A stretch of 42,708 nt of DNA from Chloroflexia bacterium (lineage in GTDB: Bacteria > Chloroflexota > Chloroflexia > DTKN01), in assembly GCA_016928715.1 (NCBI GenBank), contig JAFGKG010000157.1:1-42708 (forward strand), read 5' to 3'. The notes beneath the pieces were generated by a model, which made no database searches, was not told the DNA's origin, and was given only the letters and a program-made list of their open reading frames with translations. Of this stretch, positions 2-11,466 are shown one piece after another; position 1 is the stretch's first letter; every line of letters begins with the position of its first letter. Both the position numbers and the translations under genes were made by a program.

Positions 2-949
2 TTTGCCGGCATCGCCCTGTCCAAGTCCTATACCACCGTAGACCGCGGCACCGTGGGCGTGGTGACCCGCTTTGGCGGCGTGACCGGCGTGGTCTTTCAG
101 CCCGGCCTCAACTGGCGCACGCCCTTTATCGACGAGATCCTGGTTGTCGAGACCATCATCCAGTCCTACGAGAGCAGTGATGAGCCGACTCAGTCCAGCG
201 CCGACTATACCGACATCCCCGTCTCGGCCCAGACCATCGACGGCCAGCAGATTGCGATCAAGTACACCGTGCTCTTTCGCATCCCGGCCGACCAGGCCGA
301 CGAGATCGTGCAGAACATTGGCCTGCCGGCCGCCGTCGTCGAGAACGTGGTCAAGGCCAACTCGCGCAGCCTCTGCCGCCTGCTGGCCCAAAGTTATACC
401 GCCGAGGATCTCTACAGCGGCGAGGGCGTCTTTGCCTACGAGAACGAGGTGCGCAGCAGCCTGGAAAGCGTCTTTGCCCTGCGCGGCATCGTGATGGAGG
501 ACTTTCTCGTGCGCAAGATCGACTTTGACGAGGACTATATCCGGGCCATCGAGAACCAGCAGATCGCCCAGGAGAACATTGAGACGCGCCAGTACGAGGC
601 CGAGGCGGCCCAGTACGAGAAGGAGCGCCAGATCCGCCTGGCCGAGGCCGACGCCGAACGCATCAAGCTGACCGCCCAGGCCAACGCCGAGCAGCAGCGC
701 CTCCTGGCCGACGCCGAGGCCTACGGCATCGAGGTGCGCGGCCTGGCCCTGAAGGAGTATCCCGAGTTGGTCCAGTGGGAATTTGTGCGCAACCTGGTCG
801 GTGTGCAGTGGGGCATCCTGCCCAGCGACGGCGTGACCCCCCTGATCCCGCTGCCCGAATTCGAGCAGCCGGTCCTGACGCCTACGCCCACCGTGCCCCC
901 CGTACCCACACCTGTACCGACACCTGAACCCACACCCAGCACTCCCTAG
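2..949 (+). CDS. SPFH/band 7 (prohibitin-like) protein, 5' end missing
   Basis: The frame is open from the first bases of the window, so the true start lies upstream; 315 residues are visible. The visible N-terminus has the typical SPFH entry (DRGTVGVVTRFGGV, then a PGLNWRTPFID turn), preceded by what may be the end of a membrane anchor. The middle is the band-7 fold. From about residue 180 comes a charged, Ala/Glu/Gln-rich helical stretch that should form the coiled coil used for oligomerisation. The C-terminus ends in a low-complexity Pro/Thr tail rich in PTP units. SPFH proteins build membrane-bound rings or scaffolds that affect proteases and membrane organisation; the specific partner here is unknown. 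A terminator hairpin follows, separating it from the macroglobulin gene. Family assignment is confident, cellular role is not. Confidence 0.88.
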   Translation, partial: FAGIALSKSYTTVDRGTVGVVTRFGGVTGVVFQPGLNWRTPFIDEILVVETIIQSYESSDEPTQSSADYTDIPVSAQTIDGQQIAIKYTVLFRIPADQADEIVQNIGLPAAVVENVVKANSRSLCRLLAQSYTAEDLYSGEGVFAYENEVRSSLESVFALRGIVMEDFLVRKIDFDEDYIRAIENQQIAQENIETRQYEAEAAQYEKERQIRLAEADAERIKLTAQANAEQQRLLADAEAYGIEVRGLALKEYPELVQWEFVRNLVGVQWGILPSDGVTPLIPLPEFEQPVLTPTPTVPPVPTPVPTPEPTPSTP

Positions 950-1100: not shown

Positions 1101-4100
1101 ATGACAGCCCGCGTACCCGTTCCCAAATCTCCGCCTTCCCGTTTCCCTACCCGCAACTCCTGGTGGTCCAGCGCACTGCAGCTCTTGATCGTGCTGCTGG
1201 TGGCCGGCGGCCTGGTCGGCCTGCAGCGGCTGCACACCCTGCCCGAGCGCATAGACGACCAGCAGACCATCGTCGTCGGTCCCCGGCAGTTCGCCCCCGA
1301 CAGCGACGCCTCGCTCCGCGTGGTGGTGCAGGACGCCGCCGGCGGCCAGGCCATCGAGGGCGCCCGCGTCAAGCTCCGGCTCAAGCCGGAAATCGGCGGC
1401 ACCCTGGACCTGTACGAGGGCCGCACCGATGCCAGCGGCAGCCTGCCGGTGCAGTTCCACCTGCCGACCGACCTGGAGGGGCCGGCCCAGCTTATCGTCG
1501 AGACCGACTCGGAGCTGGGCCGCGACCGCATCGAACAGACCATTATCGTCCAGCGCGACTATCGCCTGCTCATCAGCAGCGACAAGCCCCTCTACCAACC
1601 CGGCCAGACCATCCACATGCGCGTCCTGGCCCTGAACAACCACGACCTCAGCCCCGCCCGGGGCAGCACGGTCGATTTTGTCGTGCAGGACCCCAAGGGC
1701 AACAAGGTCTACCGCCAGAGCGTGACGACCTCTGATTTCGGGGTCGCCGCGCTCGATTTCACCCTGGCCGACATGGTCAACCAGGGCTCCTACAAGTTGG
1801 GCGCCTCCATCGGCGACACCGGCTCGGAAAAGACCGTCGAGGTGCGCCCCTATGTGCTGCCCAAGTTCGGCCTCAGCGTCTCGACCGAGCGCAGCTTTTA
1901 CCTGCCCGGCGAGCGCGTCGAGGGCCTGCTCCAGGCGGACTATTTCTTTGGCAAGCCGGTCGCCCAGGGCCAGGTACAGATCGAGGGCACGGTCTGGGAC
2001 GTGGGCCGCAACGTGCTGTTGGAACTGCAGGGCCAGACCGACGAGAACGGCGCCTTTGCCTTTAGCTTTGACCTGCCGGACTATTTTGCCGGTTCCGGTC
2101 TGGATGCCGGCCAGGCCCAGTTCGCCCTGGAGGTTACCGTCATCGACCAGACCGAGCACGCCGAGCAGACCAGCCTGGTCCTGCCCATCGCCGCCCAACC
2201 CCTGCTCATCGAGGCCGTCGCCGAGAGCGGCGCGCTCAAGCCCGGGGTCGAGAACGTCGTCTACCTGCTCACCACCTACCCCGACGGTCGGCCGGCCCCG
2301 ACCCGGATGCAGTTCAGCCTGGACGGCGGCGAGCCCGTCGATCTGCGCAGCAGCCAGTTCGGCCTGGCCGAGTTCCGTTTTGTGCCCCGGTCGGGGGCGA
2401 CCCACGCCCTGAACGTCACCGCCCGGGACGAGGCCGGCCGCTCCGCCGGCCGGCAGTTCGCCCTCTCGGCCGAGGCCGGGGGGGACAGCGTGCTGCTGCG
2501 CGCCGACCGCGCCTCCTACGTCGTCGGCGAGACGATGCACCTGCTGGCCCTGAGCCCGCTGCAGAGCGGCTCCATCTACCTGGACGTCGTCAAGGCCGGC
2601 CAGACCCTCTCCACCCGCTCCGCGCTCGTGCAGGGCGGCCGGGCGGAATTCGTCCTCGACGTCGGCCCCGAATTGTACGGCACCATCGAACTGCACGCCT
2701 ACAAGGTGCTGCTCGACGGCACTATCGTCCGCGACAGCCGCCTGGTGCTGGTGGACGCCCCCAACGACCTGGCCATCGGCATCCACGCCGACCGCGATAG
2801 CTACCTGCCCGGAGATGTCGCCCACATGGCCTTCCAGACCAGCGCCGCCGCCCATCCCGACCTCGGCGTGCAGGCCGTCCTGGGCCTGGCCATCGTGGAC
2901 GAATCCGTCTTTGCCCTGCAGCAGCAGGACCCCGGTTTCGCCAAGCTCTATTTCATGCTGGAGCAGGAACTGCTGGAGCCCTTTTACCAGGTGCAGGGCT
3001 TTGACCTGCCCAGCACTCTGCCCCCCGACCAGGAGCCGGCGCGGGAGGCCCAGGACCTGGCCGCCAAGGCCAGTTGGGCCGGCCTGACCGGCGCGTCGGC
3101 CGCCCCGCTGAATTCCCGCCCGCAAAAACAGGAGGCCCTGCGCCAGGCGCAGCTCCAGGGCTTTGAGCTTGTCGGCCAGGCCGGCGCCGTCGCCATGCTG
3201 CTCATCCCCCTGTCGCTCTGGGCGGTGGGTCTGCTGGCCCTGCGCAAAAGCGGCCTGCTGGGGCGGAGCCTGCTGCGCCTGCTCCTGGCCATGGTCATCG
3301 TGCTGGCCGTCACCGTGCCGCTGGGCTTTGTTCTGGCCCGCCACGCTGAGGCCCTCCTGCCGCCCCTGCTGGTGCTCGCCGCCGCCGGCGTGCTCGTCCT
3401 GGGGGGCTATGGCTGGGCCCGGGGCGACCGCGCCGCCCAGCTCTTTGCCCTATTCAGCCTGGCCTGGGCCGCCGCGCTCTTTGTGCTCGTGCGCGCCTCC
3501 GATTGGGCCGCGCCGCCCCAGGGACTGCTCGTCGCCGCCCTGCTCGCTTACCTGCTCGTCCCCGGCGCCTACCTGCTGTTGGGGCAGGGGCGCTGGCTGC
3601 AGGCGCGCCGCTTTGCCGGCGGGTTGGCCAGCGGGCTGGGCGGCCTGCTCACCATACCGGCCCTGGGCGTGGCCCTGCTCTCCCTGAGCCTGTTCAACGC
3701 CGGTGTGGCCGGGACGGCCTGGCCCGGAGGCGCCCCGCCCCAGGACCTGGTGCTGGAGGACGGCATGGTCCTGCGGGGGGCGCCCATGCCCACGCCCGCC
3801 CCCGCCCTAGAGAAGGACGGTGCGGGCCGCAACGAGCAGGCCGCGGCCGGCGAGCCGCCCCGCCTGCGGCAGTACTTTCCCGAGACCCTCTACTGGGCAC
3901 CCGAGGTCCTCACCGACGAGAACGGCTACGTCGTGCTGGACGTCCCCATGGCCGACAGCATTACCACCTGGCGGCTCACCGCCCTGGCCTCCTCCCAGGA
4001 CGGCCGGCTCGGCTTTGCCACCCAGGGCCTGCGCGTCTTTCAGGATTTCTTTGTCGACGTGGACCTGCCCGTCGCCCTGACCCAGGGGGACGAGATCAGC

Positions 4101-5960
4101 ATCCCGGTCGGTGTGTTCAACTATTTGCCCCAGGAACAGGAGGTGCGCCTGGTGGTGCAGCAGGAATCCTGGTTCGAACTGCTGGGGCCCCAGGAGCAGA
4201 CCCTGCTCATTGCTTCCAACGACATCGAGGTGGTCTATTTCCCCATCCGCGTCCGCGAATTCGGCTGGCGGGGCTTCCAGGTCACGGCCTGGGGCAGCCA
4301 GATGAACGACGCTATCCGCCGCCAGGTGCGGGTCCTGCCCGACGGGCAGGAGGTCCGCCTCAGTGAGAGCGATTGGCTGCGCCAGACCAAGACCGTGGCT
4401 GTGGACATTCCCGCCGGGACCGTGCCGGGCACCGCCTATGTCGAGGTCAAGATCTATCCCGGCGTGATGGCCCAGGTCATTGAGGGCCTGGAAAAGATCC
4501 TGCGCCTGCCCCACGGCTGATTCGAACAGAGTACGTCGGCGACGTACCCGAACGTTCTCATCCTCGACTATATGCAGCGCACCGAACAGGCCAGCCCGGA
4601 GGTCCAAATGACCGCGGAAAAATACGTCGGCACCGGTTACCAGCGCCTGCTCACCTTTGAGGTCCCCGGCGGCGGCTTTTCCCTCTTTGGCCAGGCCCCG
4701 GCCAGCGTCTTTCTCTCCGCCTACGGCCTGATGGAATTCAGCGACATGGCCCAGGTCTATCCCGTGGACGAGGCGGTGATCGAGCGCACGGCCCAATGGC
4801 TGCTGAACCAGCAGCAGTCCAACGGAAGCTGGAGCGCGCAGGGCTACTCGGAGCATTGGGCCATCGACTCCGATACGGCCACCAGCGCCTACATCGCCTG
4901 GTCCCTGATCGAGGCCGGCTACGGGGATACAGACCCGGTGGGGCGGGCCATCGAATACGTCCGCGAGTTCGCCCTGCAGGAGCAGGACCCCTATAACCTG
5001 GCCCTGGTGGCCAATGCCCTGGCCGCCTACGATCCGGCCCACAGCAGCACCCGCGCCGCCCTGGACAGGCTGTACGAACTGCGGGTGCAGGAGGGGGAGG
5101 TGGTCTATTGGACCACGCCGGGCGCCTCCTTTATGGGCGCCTCCGGCGAGAGCGGCAGCCTCGAGGCCACCGCCCTGGCCTCTATCGCCCTGATGCGGGC
5201 CGACCTCTATCCCGACGCCGTCGGTGGGGCGCTGGCCTACCTGATCCAGGGCAAGGACAGTTGGGGCACCTGGAGCACCACCCAGGCCACGATCCTCACG
5301 CTCAAGGCCCTGCTGCTCTCGACCGAAAGGAGCGGCCAGGCCGCCGGCCCCTCCACCCTGCGGGTGAGCCTGAACAACGAGCTGAGCCAGGAGATCCGCA
5401 TCGACGGGAGCAACGCCGACGTGGTGCACGTGGTCTCCTTTGACCACGGCTTTCTGCCCTCCGGGGGCGATCAGGTCCAGATCGAGCTGGAGGGCGGTGG
5501 CAACCTGATGTACCAAGTCGCCAGCAGCTTTTACCTGCCCTGGGAGCAGGTCCTGCCCAGGCCCGAGGCAGAGGAGCTCATCCACATCGATCTGGCCTAC
5601 GACCGCACCAGTCTGGCCGTCAACGATACCGTCACCGTGGACGTCGGCGTCGAGCTCAAGCGGGAGGGCGTGGTCAAGATGGCCCTGATCGACCTGGGGG
5701 TGCCGCCCGGCTTTACGGTGCTGACGGAGGACCTCAGCCTGCTGGTGGAGCAGGGCCTGATCGCTCGCTACGAGCTGACCGGCCGGCAGGTCATTGTCTA
5801 CCTGGAGGATTTCTCCTCCGAGGCCCCGCTGCGTTTCAGCTACCGCCTGCGGGCGCGCTTTCCGCTGCGGGCGCAGACCCCGCCATCCAGTGCCTACGAC
5901 TATTACAATCCCTCCCAGGTATCGGTGCAGGCGCCGTTGGAGATGCAGGTGAGCGAATAG
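1101..5960 (+). CDS. Alpha-2-macroglobulin-like protein with in-frame TGA (probable selenocysteine) at the thioester Cys
   Basis: Read through TGA 4518-4520 this encodes 1619 residues with Sec at position 1140. Both sides of the TGA are in the same frame, with no other stop. The junction reads RLPHG-[TGA]-FEQSTSATYPNV, matching the bacterial thioester signature PxGCxEQ...YPN with TGA in place of Cys. Order seen: N-terminal membrane anchor (about 24-42), macroglobulin beta-domains (60-680), six hydrophobic helices (about 692-866), the A2M domain (FPETLYWAPEV near 930), the thioester motif (1138-1143), the alpha-helical thioester domain, and a receptor-binding-like end (YDYYNPSQ). Apart from the TGA position I find no Cys in the protein. 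Start ATG 1101 has AAGGAGG 7 nt upstream. In the family, Cys and Gln form an internal thioester that traps attacking proteases or surfaces; Sec would give a selenoester. Alternatives: nonsense mutation of a Cys codon, or sequencing error, giving truncated (1101-4520) and remnant (to 5960) pieces. Confidence 0.8.
4518..4552 (+). promoter_or_regulatory. Candidate bacterial SECIS element in the macroglobulin gene
   Basis: Directly after TGA 4518-4520 lies a perfect 7-bp stem (4531-4537 GTACGTC with 4541-4547 GACGTAC) with a GGC loop at 4538-4540. An outer 4-bp helix (TTCG 4521-4524 with CGAA 4549-4552) closes it across an asymmetric internal loop. The apical loop starts 17 nt past the TGA and begins with G, fitting the published bacterial SECIS rules (loop 16-37 nt downstream, G in the first two loop positions). 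The stem is written in codons AGT ACG TCG GCG ACG, unusual for a gene that strongly prefers AGC and ACC, which suggests selection on the RNA. No bulged U as in E. coli fdhF is evident. Confidence 0.72.
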
Positions 5961-6166: not shown

Positions 6167-6583
6167 ATGGTAATCACGGAGGAAATTCAACTGCACACCC
6201 AGGGGCACACCGATATCCAGGACATTACCGTGCAGGTGGCCCAAGCGGTGGCCGAATCGGAGCTGGAGGCCGGCATCGTCACCATTTTTTGCCCCGGTTC
6301 GACCGGCGCGCTGACGACGATCGAGTACGAGAGCGGCGCCCTGGAGGATCTGCGCCAGGTACTGGACGAGATCGCTCCGCCCGACCGGCCCTATCGCCAC
6401 CACCTGCGCTGGGGCGACGACAACGGGCACTCCCACGTTCGGGCGGCGCTCCTGGGTCCCTCGCTGACGGTACCATTTGCCCAGGGCCTCTTGACCCTGG
6501 GCAAATGGCAGCAGATCGTCTTTTTGGACCTGGACACCCGTTCCCGTTCCCGGCGGCTGGTCGTGCAGATTTTAGGGGACTAG
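6167..6583 (+). CDS. YjbQ/UPF0047 family protein
   Basis: The 138-residue product matches the usual length and motifs of the YjbQ (UPF0047) family: STGALTTIEYESG near residue 45 and the metal-site-like stretch GDDNGHSHVRAALLG near residue 83. Family members are small trimeric proteins; some show weak thiamine-phosphate synthase activity, but the physiological role is unsettled. ATG 6167 follows a G-rich stretch (GGGGGGG) 6 nt upstream. Its 3' end overlaps the convergent STAS gene by 12 bp, so the two share a junction with no room for a terminator. It stands alone between the macroglobulin gene and the minus-strand signalling cassette. Confidence 0.9.
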   Translation: MVITEEIQLHTQGHTDIQDITVQVAQAVAESELEAGIVTIFCPGSTGALTTIEYESGALEDLRQVLDEIAPPDRPYRHHLRWGDDNGHSHVRAALLGPSLTVPFAQGLLTLGKWQQIVFLDLDTRSRSRRLVVQILGD

Positions 6584-6930: not shown

Positions 6931-9834
6931 TTACGGGGTAGGGGTGCTCTCGTCCGACGCCGGGGTGATCTGTTTGATCAACCAGAGGATATTGCCCTGC
7001 TCCGGATCGGATTCGTACTTGATCCTATCCACCAACTGCTGGATCAGGTACACGCCCAGACCGCCGATGGGGCGATCCTCCCAGGAGGACCCCAGATCGG
7101 GTGCGGGGGCGTGGTGCGGATCAAAGGGGGTGCCCCGATCCTGCAGGGTGACGACGAACTCGTCCTCCTCCACCCAACAATGGAGCAAGAGCTCACCATC
7201 CTCCTGGCCCTCGTAAGCGTACTGGATGACGTTGGTACAGGCCTCGTCCAGCGCCAGCCGGACGTGATAGGCCTGGCGCTCATTCAGACCGGCGTCTTGG
7301 GCCGCCTCCAGGATGAAATTACTGATCGCGGTGAGGTTTTCCAGGCGACTGCTTACTCTGAGGTGTCGCTGCAATTCCCCCTCCTCTTGGGTTTCGGGTA
7401 CGGGTTCTGTGGGCTGGTAATCGTCGGCCACCTTGACCACCAGCAGGGTGATGTCGTCGAACTGCGGCTCGTCCTGGGTAAAGGCCTTGACCTCCAGGCT
7501 GATCTGGGCCATCAGTTCGGCCGGCGGGAGATGGTGGTGCTGTTCGATCACCGTCTTGAGCCGCTCTTCCCCGAACAGTTCCGCCTGGGCATTTTTGGCC
7601 TCGGTGACGCCGTCCGTATAGAGCACCAGTACGTCGCCGGGTTCTAGCTGAACTTCGCCCTCTCCCAAAAAGACGTCGTCGATCGCGCCGAGGGCAATCC
7701 CTTTGGCCTTGAGCATCATGCCGCGGCGGATGTCCTTGCCGATGAGAAAGGGCGGGTTATGGCCGGCGTTGATAAAGTGGAGGTGCATGGTTTGTGTATT
7801 GACGACGGCGTAAAAGAGGGTGACGAACATCGAACTCTTGGTATCCTCCAACATAAAAGCGTTGGCCTTTTTGAGGGCGGTGAGTACGTCCGTCGTGCCC
7901 ATGGAATAGGCGCGGATGAGGCTGCGGGAGAGGGCCATAAAGAGGGCCGCGGGCACCCCCTTGTCCGAGACGTCGGCTACCAACAGGCCCAGCCGGCCGC
8001 CGGCCAGGGGGATAAAGTCGTAAAAGTCCCCCCCCACGTGCCGGGCGGGCAGGTTCATCGCCGCCACGGCCAGTCCTTCGACCTGGGGCCAACTGCGGGG
8101 CAAAAAGCTCTGCTGGATATCCCGGGCAATCTCGAGTTCGCGCACAAAGCGCTCCCGTTCGGCGGTCGTGCGGGCCAGTTCGGTGGTATAGTGTTTCAGG
8201 TCAACGGTCATTTGGTTAAAGGCGCCGGCCAACTGGCCGATCTCGTCGTGCGAGCTGATCTCCACCCGGGTGTCCAGGTCGCCGCGGCCGATGGCCTCGG
8301 TCCCCTGCACCAGGGTTTGGATAGGGCTGGTGATGTTGCGGGCCAACAGGACGGCGATGCCGGCGACCGCCAGCACCGTGATGCCCAGGATCAGGCGGGT
8401 GTTGCTCACCAACTCTTGGCGCTCCTGCTCGATCTGGCGTTCCACCCGGTCGGCTGTCTCCTGCATGCCCTCCTCGACCTGGTTGGCCGTCTGCTGCATC
8501 TCCTGCTCGACCCGATCGGCGGTCTGTTCGATGGCCGCCTCGACCAGGGCGGCCGGTTCGTGGAACTGCTCGCGGTCGGCCGTCACGGCCACCCAGCCAA
8601 AGCCGGCCGGGCTGTTGTAGCGCCCGGTGTAGTAGGGGATAGTGGCGTAGGAGAGGTTGCGCAGGCGCCCCTCGGGGTGGGCCTGGTCGATCCAGACGTA
8701 TTCCTTCGAGCCCGAGGTGACCCCCTCCTGGTTCTCCTGGCAGACTTTGGGATAGACGGGGTCAATAAAGCCAAAGTCCCACAGATTGGCGGGGATGTAG
8801 CCGGTTTTGGCTTGTTCGGCAGCATCCTCGGCGTTAAGCGAGGGGACCAGCCGCCCCCGCTCGTCCAGGCCGACGATGTAATAGTGCCGGCCCTGGGAGA
8901 TGGACCAGCCGCGGTTGTCAATGATGTACGAATGCAGCCCCGTGATCGAGCCCACCTCCAGGCGATAGCGCTCCTCGTTGCTGATCATGTGGTTGGTGAA
9001 TTCCATGACGTGATCGTGGTCGAGGGAGAGCATGACGAAACCGATCTTTTCCCCATTCTCGAATATGGGCGTGGCGAAGCGAATGACGCCCTCGTAGCGT
9101 TGGCCCTGGGGGTTCTCCTCGGCGGCATAGGCGATGCTGACCGGCAGGTACCAGCCCAGCACCTCCGAGACATAGATCTCCCCTTGTGCCAGGGCCATGG
9201 CCTGGGCATAGTAGTTCTCCCTTTTATAGGTAGTGTTCTGGGGCAGGCTTACATCGCGCAGTTCGTTCCGGGGCACAATCTCGCCATCGCGAATGCGAAT
9301 GACCTCCTGGCCGTTTTTGTCGATAAAGGCGACCTCGCGGTACAAGGGTTTGTCGATGACAATCCCCTCTTCCCAGGCCCGGGTTCCAGGGACCGTGTTC
9401 TCGCGGGTCCAGATGGGGCTGCGGTTGTTGCTGTAGAATCTTCGGTAGGCCTGGGCGTCCCGGGGGAGCAGGGCCAGGGTCCGCAGGTCATCCTCCCGTT
9501 CGTAGAGAAAGCGGGCGATGCTCTGGGCCTTGTCGTAGGCGCGCAGCTCAAAGGACTCTTGGGAACGTTCGTCCAGGGCCTGTTTGCTGGGCGGGATGGC
9601 CTCCTCGGCCATCTGCTCGTAGCCCTGCAGGGCCTTGGTGGTGACCTCGGCATAGCCCTGGGCGGCCTTGGCCGTGATCTCGGTATAGCCCTGGTTGGCT
9701 TTGGTCGTTACCTCTGAGTAGCCCTGGGTCGAGACAAGGACGATCACGACCAGGGGGACCAGCGCGCAGAGGAGAATGGCCAACAACACCTTGATCAGCA
9801 AACGAAAGCGAACGGGGGACTTGGTTGGGTTCAA
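6931..9834 (-). CDS. Membrane sensor with HAMP, SpoIIE-type PP2C phosphatase and fused HATPase
   Basis: I choose TTG 9834 (967 residues): it follows GGAGGT by 6 nt and overlaps the upstream stop in a TTGA arrangement, indicating coupling. Order: TM1 (about 12-35), four tandem 11-residue repeats of the type QGYxEVTTKAx (36-80), an extracytoplasmic Cache-like sensor domain, a second block of four 11-residue repeats of the type ExADRVExxMQ (about 430-475), TM2 (478-500), HAMP, PP2C/SpoIIE (about 575-800, with GGDFYDF and DDITLLVV), and a C-terminal HATPase (LDEACTNVIQYAYEG, GGLGVYLI). It carries the antagonist phosphatase and the anti-sigma-like kinase modules in one chain, so the ligand-binding domain could set the phosphorylation state of the STAS protein downstream. 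The signal sensed is unknown. Confidence 0.9.
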   Translation of the reverse strand: MNPTKSPVRFRLLIKVLLAILLCALVPLVVIVLVSTQGYSEVTTKANQGYTEITAKAAQGYAEVTTKALQGYEQMAEEAIPPSKQALDERSQESFELRAYDKAQSIARFLYEREDDLRTLALLPRDAQAYRRFYSNNRSPIWTRENTVPGTRAWEEGIVIDKPLYREVAFIDKNGQEVIRIRDGEIVPRNELRDVSLPQNTTYKRENYYAQAMALAQGEIYVSEVLGWYLPVSIAYAAEENPQGQRYEGVIRFATPIFENGEKIGFVMLSLDHDHVMEFTNHMISNEERYRLEVGSITGLHSYIIDNRGWSISQGRHYYIVGLDERGRLVPSLNAEDAAEQAKTGYIPANLWDFGFIDPVYPKVCQENQEGVTSGSKEYVWIDQAHPEGRLRNLSYATIPYYTGRYNSPAGFGWVAVTADREQFHEPAALVEAAIEQTADRVEQEMQQTANQVEEGMQETADRVERQIEQERQELVSNTRLILGITVLAVAGIAVLLARNITSPIQTLVQGTEAIGRGDLDTRVEISSHDEIGQLAGAFNQMTVDLKHYTTELARTTAERERFVRELEIARDIQQSFLPRSWPQVEGLAVAAMNLPARHVGGDFYDFIPLAGGRLGLLVADVSDKGVPAALFMALSRSLIRAYSMGTTDVLTALKKANAFMLEDTKSSMFVTLFYAVVNTQTMHLHFINAGHNPPFLIGKDIRRGMMLKAKGIALGAIDDVFLGEGEVQLEPGDVLVLYTDGVTEAKNAQAELFGEERLKTVIEQHHHLPPAELMAQISLEVKAFTQDEPQFDDITLLVVKVADDYQPTEPVPETQEEGELQRHLRVSSRLENLTAISNFILEAAQDAGLNERQAYHVRLALDEACTNVIQYAYEGQEDGELLLHCWVEEDEFVVTLQDRGTPFDPHHAPAPDLGSSWEDRPIGGLGVYLIQQLVDRIKYESDPEQGNILWLIKQITPASDESTPTP

Positions 9835-11378
9835 TTGGACACCTCCCCTCGGACTTGAGCCGGGGACAATGAACAACTTGCTGTGGATTCGTACTGTCTT
9901 TGAATGTACTGTCTCAGGGTTTGGGCCAGATCTGAAACCACCATGATCTGGCCAAAGTCGATGGGCACATTGAGGTACTGCAGGCGAAGGACGTCCTGGC
10001 CATCTTGTTTGGGTAGGACGCCGGCGATGATAAAGCCCATGGCCTCGAAATGGGCGCAGAGCAGGGCCGTATGGGGGTTGCTCAAGGGCAGGTCGAGGTG
10101 GATGCAGGCGATGCCCTTGCGGCAGAGCTCGTTGAGTTTGATCTCGATTTCGGACGTGGCGTAGCGGCCATAGTTGATCATCTCAATGTGGGCGGCATCG
10201 TTGGCCGACATGACGTGGGTGGAGAGGATCGACTGGGCCGGGAGGGCTTGGGCCTCGACCTCATCGCGGGCCGTCGTCACCAGTTCCCGGTCGAGCCGCA
10301 GCATGGCGTACAGTCGGCCGAGGAGCGCGCGGTGATGCCAGGGCGCGTAGAGGCGGTTCTGGCCGACCGTGGACAGGGGCAAAAAACTGTAGAGCAGGGA
10401 CAGCCGCTGGGTCAGCTCTTGGCCGGCGATCTTTTTGAAATAGACGGATTGGGGAATCAGGCCCAGGAAGAGGGCCGTCTCGCGGAAACCCAGCTTGAGG
10501 CTGGCCTTTTGGGAATAGAGGTGGTTGGTCACCGGTTCGCCAAAGAGGCCGACCAGCCCATGATCGCGGGCATAGTCGATGGCAAATTGCAGCAGGCGGG
10601 TGAGCAGTCCACGGCTGCGGTGGGCGGGATCCACTGCGGCCTGGCCCAGCTCGCGGATGGGCGAGTTCACGTCTCCACCAAAGATGGCGCAGTGCCCGGC
10701 GACCTCGCCGGTGTCCGAGACGGCGACAAGGGAGATCTGCTGGCCATTCTCGTTCATGGCGATCAATCGTTCGGGGTAATAGATGTGTTCACCGGGGTAG
10801 GTGTAGCCGTAGGTCTTGTAGACACATTTGGCGACCTCGATAGCTTCGGCGGGCTCCATGGTGCGGAACTCGTAGCTGCCGGGGGGGGCCGGCCGGATCT
10901 TGGCCGCATCGGCCTCGTAGGGGCTCAGCTCCTCGTCGGAGAAATAGTTGGTGATGCTGCCGCTTTCCAGGTACTTGATCAGGTGGAGCTCTTTGCCCTC
11001 CGGCCCCTTGCTGACAAAGTGCACCTCGTCCATCAGCCTTTTCATCAGGAAAAAGCCCAGCCCGCCCAGCTCGCGGTCAAGGCCGGCGGCGGGGTCATAG
11101 TCGGCGATGAGGGAGGGGTTGAAGGGCATGCCCGTGTCGGCGACAATGACCCGCAGCCCGACGTCGGACTCTTCGCAAATGATGCGGAGCAGGTTTTTCT
11201 CCCCCGGTTCAAAGGCGGTCTCGATCACGTGGGTGCAGGCTTCGTCCGCGGCCAGGCGGATGCGGTTGGTCTCTTGTTCCGAAAAGCCGACCTTGGCGGC
11301 GATTGCTTTCACGTATGCGCCAATGGCTGGCAGGTAGGACAGGTCATTGGGAATGGTTAGTTCGGTTCGATCTTGCAT
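9831..11378 (-). CDS. HATPase (RsbW-like) fused to GNAT acetyltransferase
   Basis: The start is placed at ATG 11378 (515 residues), where the HATPase domain begins; GGATGTGAG just upstream is a modest ribosome site. Residues 1-140 are an RsbW/SpoIIAB-type HATPase with intact glycine boxes (VADTGMPFNP and LGGLGFFLMKRL). Its N-box reads DEACTHVIE, so the Mg-binding Asn of the family is His (His50). Residues about 170-330 resemble a GNAT acetyltransferase (AAVDPAHRSRGLLTRLL). The remaining 180 residues look like another degenerate GNAT-like or regulatory region (GIACIHLDLPLSN, AHFEAMGFIIAGVLP). It is the first gene of the cassette and overlaps the phosphatase gene by 4 nt. The acetylation substrate is unknown; the kinase half may only bind and not phosphorylate. 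Confidence 0.8.
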   Translation of the reverse strand: MQDRTELTIPNDLSYLPAIGAYVKAIAAKVGFSEQETNRIRLAADEACTHVIETAFEPGEKNLLRIICEESDVGLRVIVADTGMPFNPSLIADYDPAAGLDRELGGLGFFLMKRLMDEVHFVSKGPEGKELHLIKYLESGSITNYFSDEELSPYEADAAKIRPAPPGSYEFRTMEPAEAIEVAKCVYKTYGYTYPGEHIYYPERLIAMNENGQQISLVAVSDTGEVAGHCAIFGGDVNSPIRELGQAAVDPAHRSRGLLTRLLQFAIDYARDHGLVGLFGEPVTNHLYSQKASLKLGFRETALFLGLIPQSVYFKKIAGQELTQRLSLLYSFLPLSTVGQNRLYAPWHHRALLGRLYAMLRLDRELVTTARDEVEAQALPAQSILSTHVMSANDAAHIEMINYGRYATSEIEIKLNELCRKGIACIHLDLPLSNPHTALLCAHFEAMGFIIAGVLPKQDGQDVLRLQYLNVPIDFGQIMVVSDLAQTLRQYIQRQYESTASCSLSPAQVRGEVSN

Positions 11379-11466
11379 CTCACATCCAGGTTCAACCGCT
11401 GACTCGCGGGCTTGCCCGAGGCCGCATTGTTCCATCTGGTGGCCGAGTAGCTATTTTCTGGGGCAC

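What the first reader, a model, noticed from the sequence alone, without database searches (positions are those of the whole stretch)
4518..4520. In-frame TGA at the thioester cysteine of an alpha-2-macroglobulin: candidate selenoester protein
Seen: the two halves of the gene are in one frame with a lone TGA between them, and the TGA falls exactly on the Cys of the thioester signature (PHG-[TGA]-FEQSTS...YPNV). Known: in this family that Cys bonds to the Gln of the same motif to make a reactive thioester. Inferred: TGA encodes selenocysteine, giving a selenoester, which would be more reactive than a thioester. I know of no described selenocysteine alpha-2-macroglobulin, but could not search.
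Basis: partly seen in the sequence, partly recalled or inferred. Interest (0 to 1): 0.96.

Follow-up and report, generated by a model that had tools for sequence, protein, structure and literature searches.

The report
Selenocysteine-containing bacterial alpha-2-macroglobulin family
A bacterial cousin of our blood protease-trapping protein appears to use selenium instead of sulfur at its reactive centre, and the same swap is seen in bacteria of several phyla, which suggests a selenium ester bond that would be a new use of selenium in a natural protein.

Summary
In detail: one alpha-2-macroglobulin (A2M) gene, 1101-5960, has a single in-frame TGA at the thioester Cys. Decay or error does not explain it. 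A motif scan of one genome for each of 84,980 species gave 48 matches; 44 (37 genomes; Planctomycetota, Chloroflexota, Myxococcota, Abditibacteriota) are A2Ms with TGA at that codon. dN/dS beyond the TGA is 0.14-0.22 in seven window pairs. Relatives carry TGC/TGT there. The draft genome has tRNA-Sec, selA and selB; selD was not found. A SECIS-type hairpin (7 bp, loop GGC, 17 nt after the TGA) sits in rare codons; that element is in 19 of 19 TGA loci and 0 of 11 Cys loci of one Chloroflexota class. Planctomycetota/Myxococcota TGA genes have other strong stem-loops (mean z -2.45, n 28; Cys 0.06, n 25). So UGA is very probably selenocysteine (about 0.95). A Sec-Gln selenoester is the natural inference, untested (about 0.6). 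No A2M is in a 2026 table of 119 prokaryotic selenoprotein families; my searches listed no report of one.

The parts
1101..5960 (+). A2M gene read through one TGA (1619 codons, stop TAG); N-terminal hydrophobic segment, MG domains, bait region, multi-helix hydrophobic insert, A2M domain, TED, receptor-binding domain
4518..4520 (+). TGA codon, predicted selenocysteine 1140, at the Cys of the CXEQ thioester motif
4509..4529 (+). thioester-site motif PHG-Sec-FEQ
4531..4547 (+). SECIS-type hairpin GTACGTC-GGC-GACGTAC, loop begins 17 nt after the TGA, loop type G[G/U]N
4529..4559 (+). alternative longer fold of the same stretch (lowest energy in the window sequence alone); the family comparison supports the 17-nt hairpin instead
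1158..1214 (+). N-terminal hydrophobic segment (residues 20-38)
   Evidence: hydropathy
1566..1838 (+). MG2 domain (PF01835)
2496..2918 (+). bait-region domain (PF07703)
3162..3677 (+). hydrophobic insert with six predicted membrane segments (residues 688-859)
   Evidence: hydropathy
3885..4154 (+). A2M domain (PF00207)
4524..5312 (+). thioester domain TED (PF07678), after the TGA
5676..5924 (+). receptor-binding domain (PF07677)

Best explanation
The gene encodes a probably membrane-anchored alpha-2-macroglobulin whose thioester cysteine is replaced by selenocysteine. Strongly supported: UGA 1140 is decoded as Sec by SelA, SelB and tRNA-Sec, directed by an in-frame bacterial SECIS hairpin at 4531-4547; the protein continues into a TED and receptor-binding domain under selection. 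Inferred: in the native fold the selenol of Sec1140 is acylated by the side chain of the Gln three residues on (U-F-E-Q), giving an intramolecular selenoester in place of the thioester. [quoted passage not shown] Also inferred: the better leaving group makes the trap faster or broader.
For: 44 A2M loci in 37 genomes have TGA at this codon, with the frame open on both sides as far as the held stretch shows; 8 further genomes were found by homology, 7 of them read. dN/dS after the TGA for seven window pairs is 0.143-0.217, and lower than before the TGA in all six pairs with both parts. Orthologues without TGA have TGC/TGT: 11 of 11 and 25 of 25. Own genome: tRNA-Sec 75 bits, cut-off 47, called by ARAGORN too, SelA 549 bits, SelB 319 bits, each over cut-off. 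The genome's SelA is closest to those of Chloroflexota TGA-A2M genomes (13 compared, 52.7-58.9% identity). TGA-A2M genomes over cut-off: selA 35 of 37, tRNA-Sec 33 of 37, 28 of them at 67 bits or more, selD 33 of 37, with an in-frame TGA in selD itself in 31 of 37. Hairpin: 17 of 45 TGA loci have a stem score of 6 or more against 0.1 expected from synonymous shuffles, 0 of 25 Cys orthologues; 19 of 19 TGA loci against 0 of 11 Cys in one class. In 22 distinct sequences 93.5% of cells pair, 0 of 500 shuffles as high; one U-A pair becomes G-U or A-U. Loop G[G/U]N and 17-nt spacing fit the published bSECIS model. Glu and Gln of the motif are invariant in 27 aligned proteins. The AlphaFold model (pLDDT 87.5) matches native CD109, A2ML1 and C3.
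Against: selD was not found in the window's genome; the draft is 88.9% complete with 5.0% contamination. Of 158 genomes of the window's own class, 23 matched the protein at 1e-20 and only the window's own has the TGA; the other matches are at most 35% identical, while the near relatives come from another class, so transfer or a misplaced contig is possible. A plain dinucleotide shuffle of 61 nt shows no excess stability (z -0.14). The lowest-energy fold of the window sequence alone is a longer alternative. Only one of the seven hairpin pairs has a two-sided change, in 6 related sequences, and four never vary. selA does not discriminate: 22 of 29 Planctomycetia genomes with Cys-type A2Ms also have it. 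Five of the 33 tRNA-Sec calls are at 49.5-53 bits, near the cut-off. Planctomycetota/Myxococcota TGA genes lack the Chloroflexota hairpin and share no single consensus stem. The pattern demanded EQ, so conservation of EQ in the 44 loci is by construction. Selenium, read-through and ester were not measured.
Confidence: 0.88

Rival explanations
1. Selenocysteine is inserted but does not form an ester: the selenol serves redox chemistry or binds a metal, as in most known selenoproteins.
For: The review considers most prokaryotic selenoproteins redox or metal related (PMC13188914). In the Chloroflexota-type group a His at the place aligned with the His of the GCGEQ-type A2Ms is present within 3 columns in 10 of 11 Cys forms but in 1 of 23 Sec forms (seven Sec forms have a His a few residues further, register uncertain), so the chemistry may have changed.
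Against: The window protein has no Cys that could pair with Sec. Glu and Gln of the motif are invariant in the 27 proteins aligned and the TED fold is predicted. Close orthologues differ in Sec or Cys at the same codon, which fits a like-for-like replacement. In the other group 20 of 28 Sec forms have a His within 3 columns.
Confidence: 0.25
2. The UGA is read by the Sec machinery or a variant tRNA but delivers cysteine or another amino acid, so that an ordinary thioester results.
For: Unusual UGA-reading tRNAs that insert Cys are known from other bacteria (recalled, not tested here). selD was not found in the window's assembly.
Against: tRNA-Sec over cut-off with anticodon TCA, SelA and SelB are present, and a bSECIS-type element follows the codon; selD carries an in-frame TGA in 31 of 37 TGA-A2M genomes. 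A plain TGC/TGT codon exists in sister genes and would be simpler.
Confidence: 0.05
3. Pseudogene or sequencing error: the TGA is a nonsense change and the downstream half is decaying.
For: Draft assemblies; reads could not be inspected.
Against: 44 loci in 37 assemblies with TGA at the same codon; TGA in 26 matching genomes, TAG in 1, TAA in 0; dN/dS after the TGA well below 1 in all 17 pairs measured (0.046-0.509); selected hairpin.
Confidence: 0.01
4. Programmed termination: UGA normally ends a shorter protein without TED, and occasional, perhaps selenium-dependent, read-through makes the full trap.
For: Sec insertion competes with termination in general (recalled); such a site could act as a selenium switch.
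Against: The part after the TGA is more constrained than the part before it in six window pairs, and Cys orthologues have no stop there.
Confidence: 0.05

Closest known systems
Type I alpha-2-macroglobulins and thioester proteins (human A2M, CD109, A2ML1, TEP1, C3/C4; bacterial Salmonella A2M and E. coli YfhM)
   Same: MG2, MG3, bait, A2M, TED and receptor-binding domains. Closest solved sequences are CD109 (6.5e-83) and human A2M (9.3e-82); the model superposes on native CD109, A2ML1, C3 and A2M (TM over query 0.80-0.86). Glu and Gln of the motif kept.
   Different: UGA in place of the Cys codon; SECIS-type hairpin inside the coding sequence; hydrophobic insert with six predicted segments; only distant similarity to the Salmonella and E. 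coli chains (9.7e-12 and 4.8e-10).
Bacterial selenoproteins (119 families/subfamilies in PMC13188914, Table 1)
   Same: In-frame UGA, downstream hairpin within the published bSECIS limits, Sec machinery in the genome, Cys-containing homologues.
   Different: No A2M or other thioester protein is in that table (read; term search). The site is an acyl-transfer site in the Cys-type relatives, not a redox or metal site.
Selenophosphate synthetase SelD as selenoprotein
   Same: Occurs in TGA-A2M genomes; in 17 of 27 selD loci read, the best stem after the UGA has a 3-nt loop G[G/T]N (no shuffle control).
   Different: A catalytic Sec of a metabolic enzyme; used here as a positive control only.

Membership tests
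Bacterial selenoprotein | in-frame UGA with conserved frame beyond it | tested here: met
Bacterial selenoprotein | homologues with Cys at the UGA position | tested here: met
Bacterial selenoprotein | other homologues with UGA at the same codon | tested here: met
   44 loci in 37 genomes; 7 more read
Bacterial selenoprotein | bSECIS: loop 3-9 nt, stem 4-16 bp, G in the first two loop positions, 16-37 nt spacing, MFE at most -7.5 | tested here: met
   7 bp, loop GGC, spacing 17; 4521-4550 folds with this hairpin at -8.4 kcal/mol, the 17-nt core alone at -7.3; model from PMC13188914
Bacterial selenoprotein | SelA, SelB and tRNA-Sec in the genome | tested here: met
   draft genome with 5.0% estimated contamination
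Bacterial selenoprotein | SelD in the genome | tested here: not met
   no match in the 88.9% complete draft; 33 of 37 other TGA-A2M genomes have it over cut-off. Absence from a draft is weak evidence.
Bacterial selenoprotein | selenium in the protein | not testable with these tools
   needs 75Se labelling or mass spectrometry
A2M/thioester protein family (by homology) | MG2, bait region, A2M, TED and receptor-binding domains above Pfam cut-offs | tested here: met
Type I (thioester) A2M, strict sense | CXEQ motif with cysteine | tested here: not met
   UGA in place of Cys; Glu and Gln present. It is a Sec variant of the type, not a thioester A2M in the strict sense.
Type I (thioester) A2M, strict sense | internal ester between the Cys/Sec and the Gln | not testable with these tools
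   needs biochemistry or a structure

The most novel reading that the evidence does not exclude
Nature uses an intramolecular selenoester: a family of bacterial macroglobulins, in at least four phyla, with repeated exchange between Cys and Sec, arms its protease trap with a Sec-Gln selenoester, a natural protein selenoester and a selenoprotein whose selenium serves acyl transfer rather than redox.
Probability: 0.6. Interest if true: 0.97.

Novelty: new variant of a known kind. Interest (0 to 1): 0.94.

Why it matters
It would add a selenoprotein family of large proteins (about 1600 residues) whose genes a standard ORF call splits in two. It would put selenocysteine at an acyl-transfer site, so the usual view that Sec serves mainly redox and metal chemistry would need widening. 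It also makes a chemical question testable in nature: what is gained by exchanging a thioester for a selenoester in the fold shared with complement C3 and A2M. The Sec/Cys exchange among close relatives in Planctomycetota gives natural pairs for that test.

Tried and rejected
Pseudogene or sequencing error: rejected. Reassigned code (TGA as a general sense codon): rejected, TGA ends 9 of 26 picked window ORFs. selA as a discriminator between Sec and Cys forms: weak, 35 of 37 against 22 of 29. Plain dinucleotide-shuffle folding of the window stretch: no signal. Folding of the first 42 nt after the TGA over 45 TGA loci: mean z -0.76, 31 of 45 below zero; the signal is clear with the bSECIS geometry or with a longer stretch in the non-Chloroflexota loci. 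One consensus structure for those 28 loci: not found; the 15-pair stem of L084 holds in 60.7% of cells, shuffled mean 58.5, 27 of 500 shuffles as high. Loss of the loop His as a general companion of Sec: not general. A first tree without the Cys orthologues suggested an all-Sec Chloroflexota clade; with them the clade is mixed. Rfam at 4450-4620: no match. PADLOC and NCBIfam: no family. The motif in viral contigs: 0 matches. A first SelA comparison took wrong frames and was discarded; redone.

Not covered by the literature check: subscription papers, supplementary tables, preprints outside PMC, and the groundwater MAG study cited as reference 66 of PMC13188914 (not held), which that review says proposes candidate selenoproteins and which might already list this family; several of my Planctomycetota loci are groundwater MAGs.

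Full report
What is there. The frame 1101-5960 is one A2M gene with a single TGA at 4518-4520 (codon 1140) and a TAG end; the predicted protein has no Cys. Pfam finds MG2, MG3, bait region and A2M before the TGA, TED and receptor-binding domains after it. Aligned with A2Ms of other genomes of the class at about 22-31% identity, the TGA lies on the Cys of GCGEQ or ACTEQ in the better matches; some distant ones have no Cys there. TGA is a normal stop elsewhere in the window (9 of 26 ORFs picked as likely genes), so the code is not reassigned.

Is it a family? I scanned genome contigs (one genome for each of 84,980 species) for P-x-G-TGA-x-E-Q-x5-[Y, A or similar]-P-N. Of 48 matches, 44 lie in A2M frames, open on both sides of the TGA as far as the held stretch shows, and 4 do not (L071, L082, L096, L105). 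41 of the 44 were long enough for the tree. By record title the 44 are 24 Planctomycetota (including a Kuenenia MAG), 13 Chloroflexota, 3 Deltaproteobacteria (Myxococcota in the taxonomy used), 1 Abditibacteriales and 3 unassigned (two of them, on one contig, group with or resemble Chloroflexota). They come from 37 genomes; six genomes hold two or three. A homology search in the class of the genome of L083 (a record titled Chloroflexi) matched 54 of 396 genomes, 20 with one TGA, none with another stop; 8 of the 20 were not in the pattern scan. The 7 of those 8 that were read have FPN instead of YPN, which the pattern excluded, so the family is larger than 44. In the class of L084's genome 104 of 397 genomes matched: 5 with a TGA, 1 with a TAG (a 30% relative), the rest without stops in the match. 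In the window's own class 23 of 158 genomes matched at 1e-20 and only the window's own has the TGA; the others are at most 35% identical.

Selection. dN/dS after the TGA for seven pairs of the window gene is 0.143-0.217. For the six of these relatives with an upstream part it is 0.232-0.341 before the TGA, in each pair higher than after it (the L110 upstream part is only 155 codons). Over all 17 pairs measured after the TGA it is 0.046-0.509, the highest being L074/L077 (0.509), L090/L098 (0.333) and L087/L109 (0.301). dS is often near or above 1 between the window and its relatives, so the ratios are rough. The downstream half is therefore made and needed.

History. A tree of 89 TED regions (quick method; 49 Sec, 40 Cys) puts the window in a nine-row all-Sec group of Chloroflexota type (support 100), inside a larger Chloroflexota-type clade of 21 Sec and 11 Cys; highest identity 77% (L110). 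Among Planctomycetota, L098 (Sec) pairs with L121 (Cys) with support 99. The tree needs 8 changes between Sec and Cys, at least 5 forced by starred branches; rows L073, L094, L103, L080, L072, L086 and L116 are long, so the number is unsure, and gain cannot be told from loss. An earlier tree of 71 rows lacked the Cys Chloroflexota orthologues.

Machinery. The window's genome (226 contigs, 88.9% complete, 5.0% contamination) has tRNA-Sec at 75 bits (cut-off 47), called tRNA-SeC with anticodon TCA by ARAGORN, SelA 549 bits and SelB 319 bits, each over cut-off. SelD was not found. Because the near A2M relatives are of another class, I compared SelA: the window genome's SelA is 52.7-58.9% identical to those of 13 Chloroflexota TGA-A2M genomes, 50.5-51.1% to three genomes of its own class and 44.5-49.8% to three Planctomycetota or Myxococcota genomes. 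This fits one organism but does not prove that the contigs belong together. In the 37 genomes with TGA-A2Ms, selA is over cut-off in 35 (G180 has a contig-edge fragment, G161 none). tRNA-Sec is over cut-off in 33, 28 at 67 bits or more and 5 at 49.5-53 bits; since 5 of 14 control genomes also pass the cut-off, those 5 may be other tRNAs. selD is over cut-off in 33 and has an in-frame TGA in 31. In the 4 genomes of the non-A2M matches selA is over cut-off in 2. In 29 Planctomycetia genomes with Cys-type A2Ms it is over cut-off in 22, so the machinery is necessary but not discriminating.

SECIS in Chloroflexota. After the TGA the window reads TTCGAACAGA-GTACGTC-GGC-GACGTAC. The codons AGT, ACG, TCG, GCG, ACG are uncommon in the gene; the five-codon window at 4530 ranks 4 of 1614, behind three at the gene start. 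Synonymous shuffles reach the fold energy in 19 of 5000 (4521-4550), 55 (4524-4562), 75 (4521-4562) and 173 (4530-4559), while a plain dinucleotide shuffle of 61 nt shows nothing (z -0.14). With the published bSECIS limits (PMC13188914) as a scan, 17 of 45 TGA loci (window plus 44) have a stem score of 6 or more, expected 0.1 from synonymous shuffles; 0 of 25 Planctomycetia Cys orthologues do. The 17 are the window, the 13 Chloroflexota loci, L092 and L099 (unassigned) and L095 (Abditibacteriales). All 17 have the loop at the same place, 17 nt after the TGA, with sequence GGC, GGT, GTT or GTC. In the homology set, 19 of 19 TGA loci (12 the same genes, 7 new) have it, with 6 or 7 pairs, and 0 of 11 Cys loci (at best 4 pairs elsewhere). 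In 22 distinct sequences 93.5% of cells pair, against 87.8% in shuffles (0 of 500 as high). At columns 15/29 a U-A pair is G-U or A-U in 6 sequences, those with Phe instead of Tyr; this is the only pair with two-sided change and may be one event, four pairs never vary, and the outermost pair is open in 10 of 22. The protein follows: the 19 TGA loci read FEQ[ST]TS, the 11 Cys loci FEQTSS. The pattern occurs in the window only here.

SECIS elsewhere. The 28 other TGA loci lack that hairpin but fold more stably than synonymous versions of themselves over 3-63 nt (mean z -2.45, se 0.26) and 9-84 nt (-2.90, se 0.24) after the TGA. 25 Planctomycetia Cys orthologues do not (0.06 and -0.18), nor do 11 Chloroflexota-type Cys orthologues (-0.23 and -0.33); the Chloroflexota-type TGA loci, whose hairpin is short, give -1.09 over 3-48, -0.81 and -0.20. 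Single folds show long stems, for example 15 pairs in L084 and 14 in L090 and L098; nine TGA loci checked form 6-15 of these 15 pairs and ten Cys relatives 6-13. The stems share no one register. As a positive control, of 27 selD loci with TGA in these genomes 17 have a best stem with a 3-nt loop G[G/T]N (no shuffle control was run).

Structure and mechanism. An AlphaFold model of residues 970-1619 from an alignment of 27 (TGA read as Cys) has mean pLDDT 87.5 and pTM 0.85. Foldseek's best matches are native CD109, A2ML1, C3 and A2M (TM over query 0.80-0.86), while the C3b chains (cleaved form) among the 50 listed score 0.37-0.39. By sequence the nearest solved chains are CD109 and human A2M; Salmonella and E. 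coli A2Ms are far more distant. Glu and Gln of the motif are invariant in the 27. In type I A2Ms the bond between Cys and Gln of CXEQ is exposed by bait-region cleavage and traps the protease covalently (PMC5764988, passages). The parsimonious inference is that Sec1140 forms a selenoester with the Gln and works the same way with a better leaving group; the review gives pKa 5.2 for the selenol against 8.3 for the thiol. This step is not shown. Hydropathy suggests an N-terminal segment and six further ones between bait region and A2M domain, so the trap is probably held in the membrane.

Known or new. Searches of 5.39 million open papers listed no title or abstract on a selenocysteine A2M; only the top rows of each listing were seen. 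In the 2026 review of prokaryotic selenoproteins I read sections 5, 7 and 8; its table of 119 families has no A2M. A term search and passages of the deep-Sep paper show none. NCBIfam release 20 has no family for the protein at E 0.001. Subscription papers, supplements and the groundwater MAG study cited by the review (not held) were not checked.

Verdict. UGA = Sec: about 0.95. Selenoester: about 0.6. This is a new selenoprotein family as far as I could check and a Sec variant of the A2M trap, found in at least four phyla.

Noticed in passing
window 3162-3677 (residues 688-859): Six hydrophobic segments between bait region and A2M domain, plus an N-terminal one; 12 Sec-type relatives were checked and most have a cluster of such segments in the same place: a polytopic membrane A2M architecture.
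   Followed up: partly
window about 4830-4870 and aligned loci: A His aligned with that of the GCGEQ-type A2Ms is present within 3 columns in 10 of 11 Chloroflexota-type Cys forms but in 1 of 23 Sec forms (seven Sec forms have SEHW a few residues further, register unsure); 20 of 28 other Sec forms have a His within 3 columns. That it equals the catalytic His of C3 is recalled.
   Followed up: partly
L075, L078, L116 (one genome); L088 and L109; L092 and L099; L069 and L103; L074 and L100; L091 and L094: Six genomes carry two or three TGA-type A2M genes, two of them with both on one contig.
   Followed up: no
L179-L208 selD loci: selD is itself a predicted selenoprotein in 31 of 37 TGA-A2M genomes.
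   Followed up: partly
Planctomycetota/Myxococcota TGA loci, +8 to +60 after the TGA: Very stable but lineage-specific stem-loops, some apparently with the loop or stem arranged outside the published bSECIS limits.
   Followed up: partly
window 2-949 and 6167-6583: Neighbours are a Band 7/SPFH protein and a UPF0047 protein; none of the four neighbouring genes scanned with Pfam is a penicillin-binding protein.
   Followed up: partly
window 6931-11435, minus strand: A SpoIIE-type phosphatase with HATPase and HAMP domains, and a HATPase/acetyltransferase fusion.
   Followed up: no
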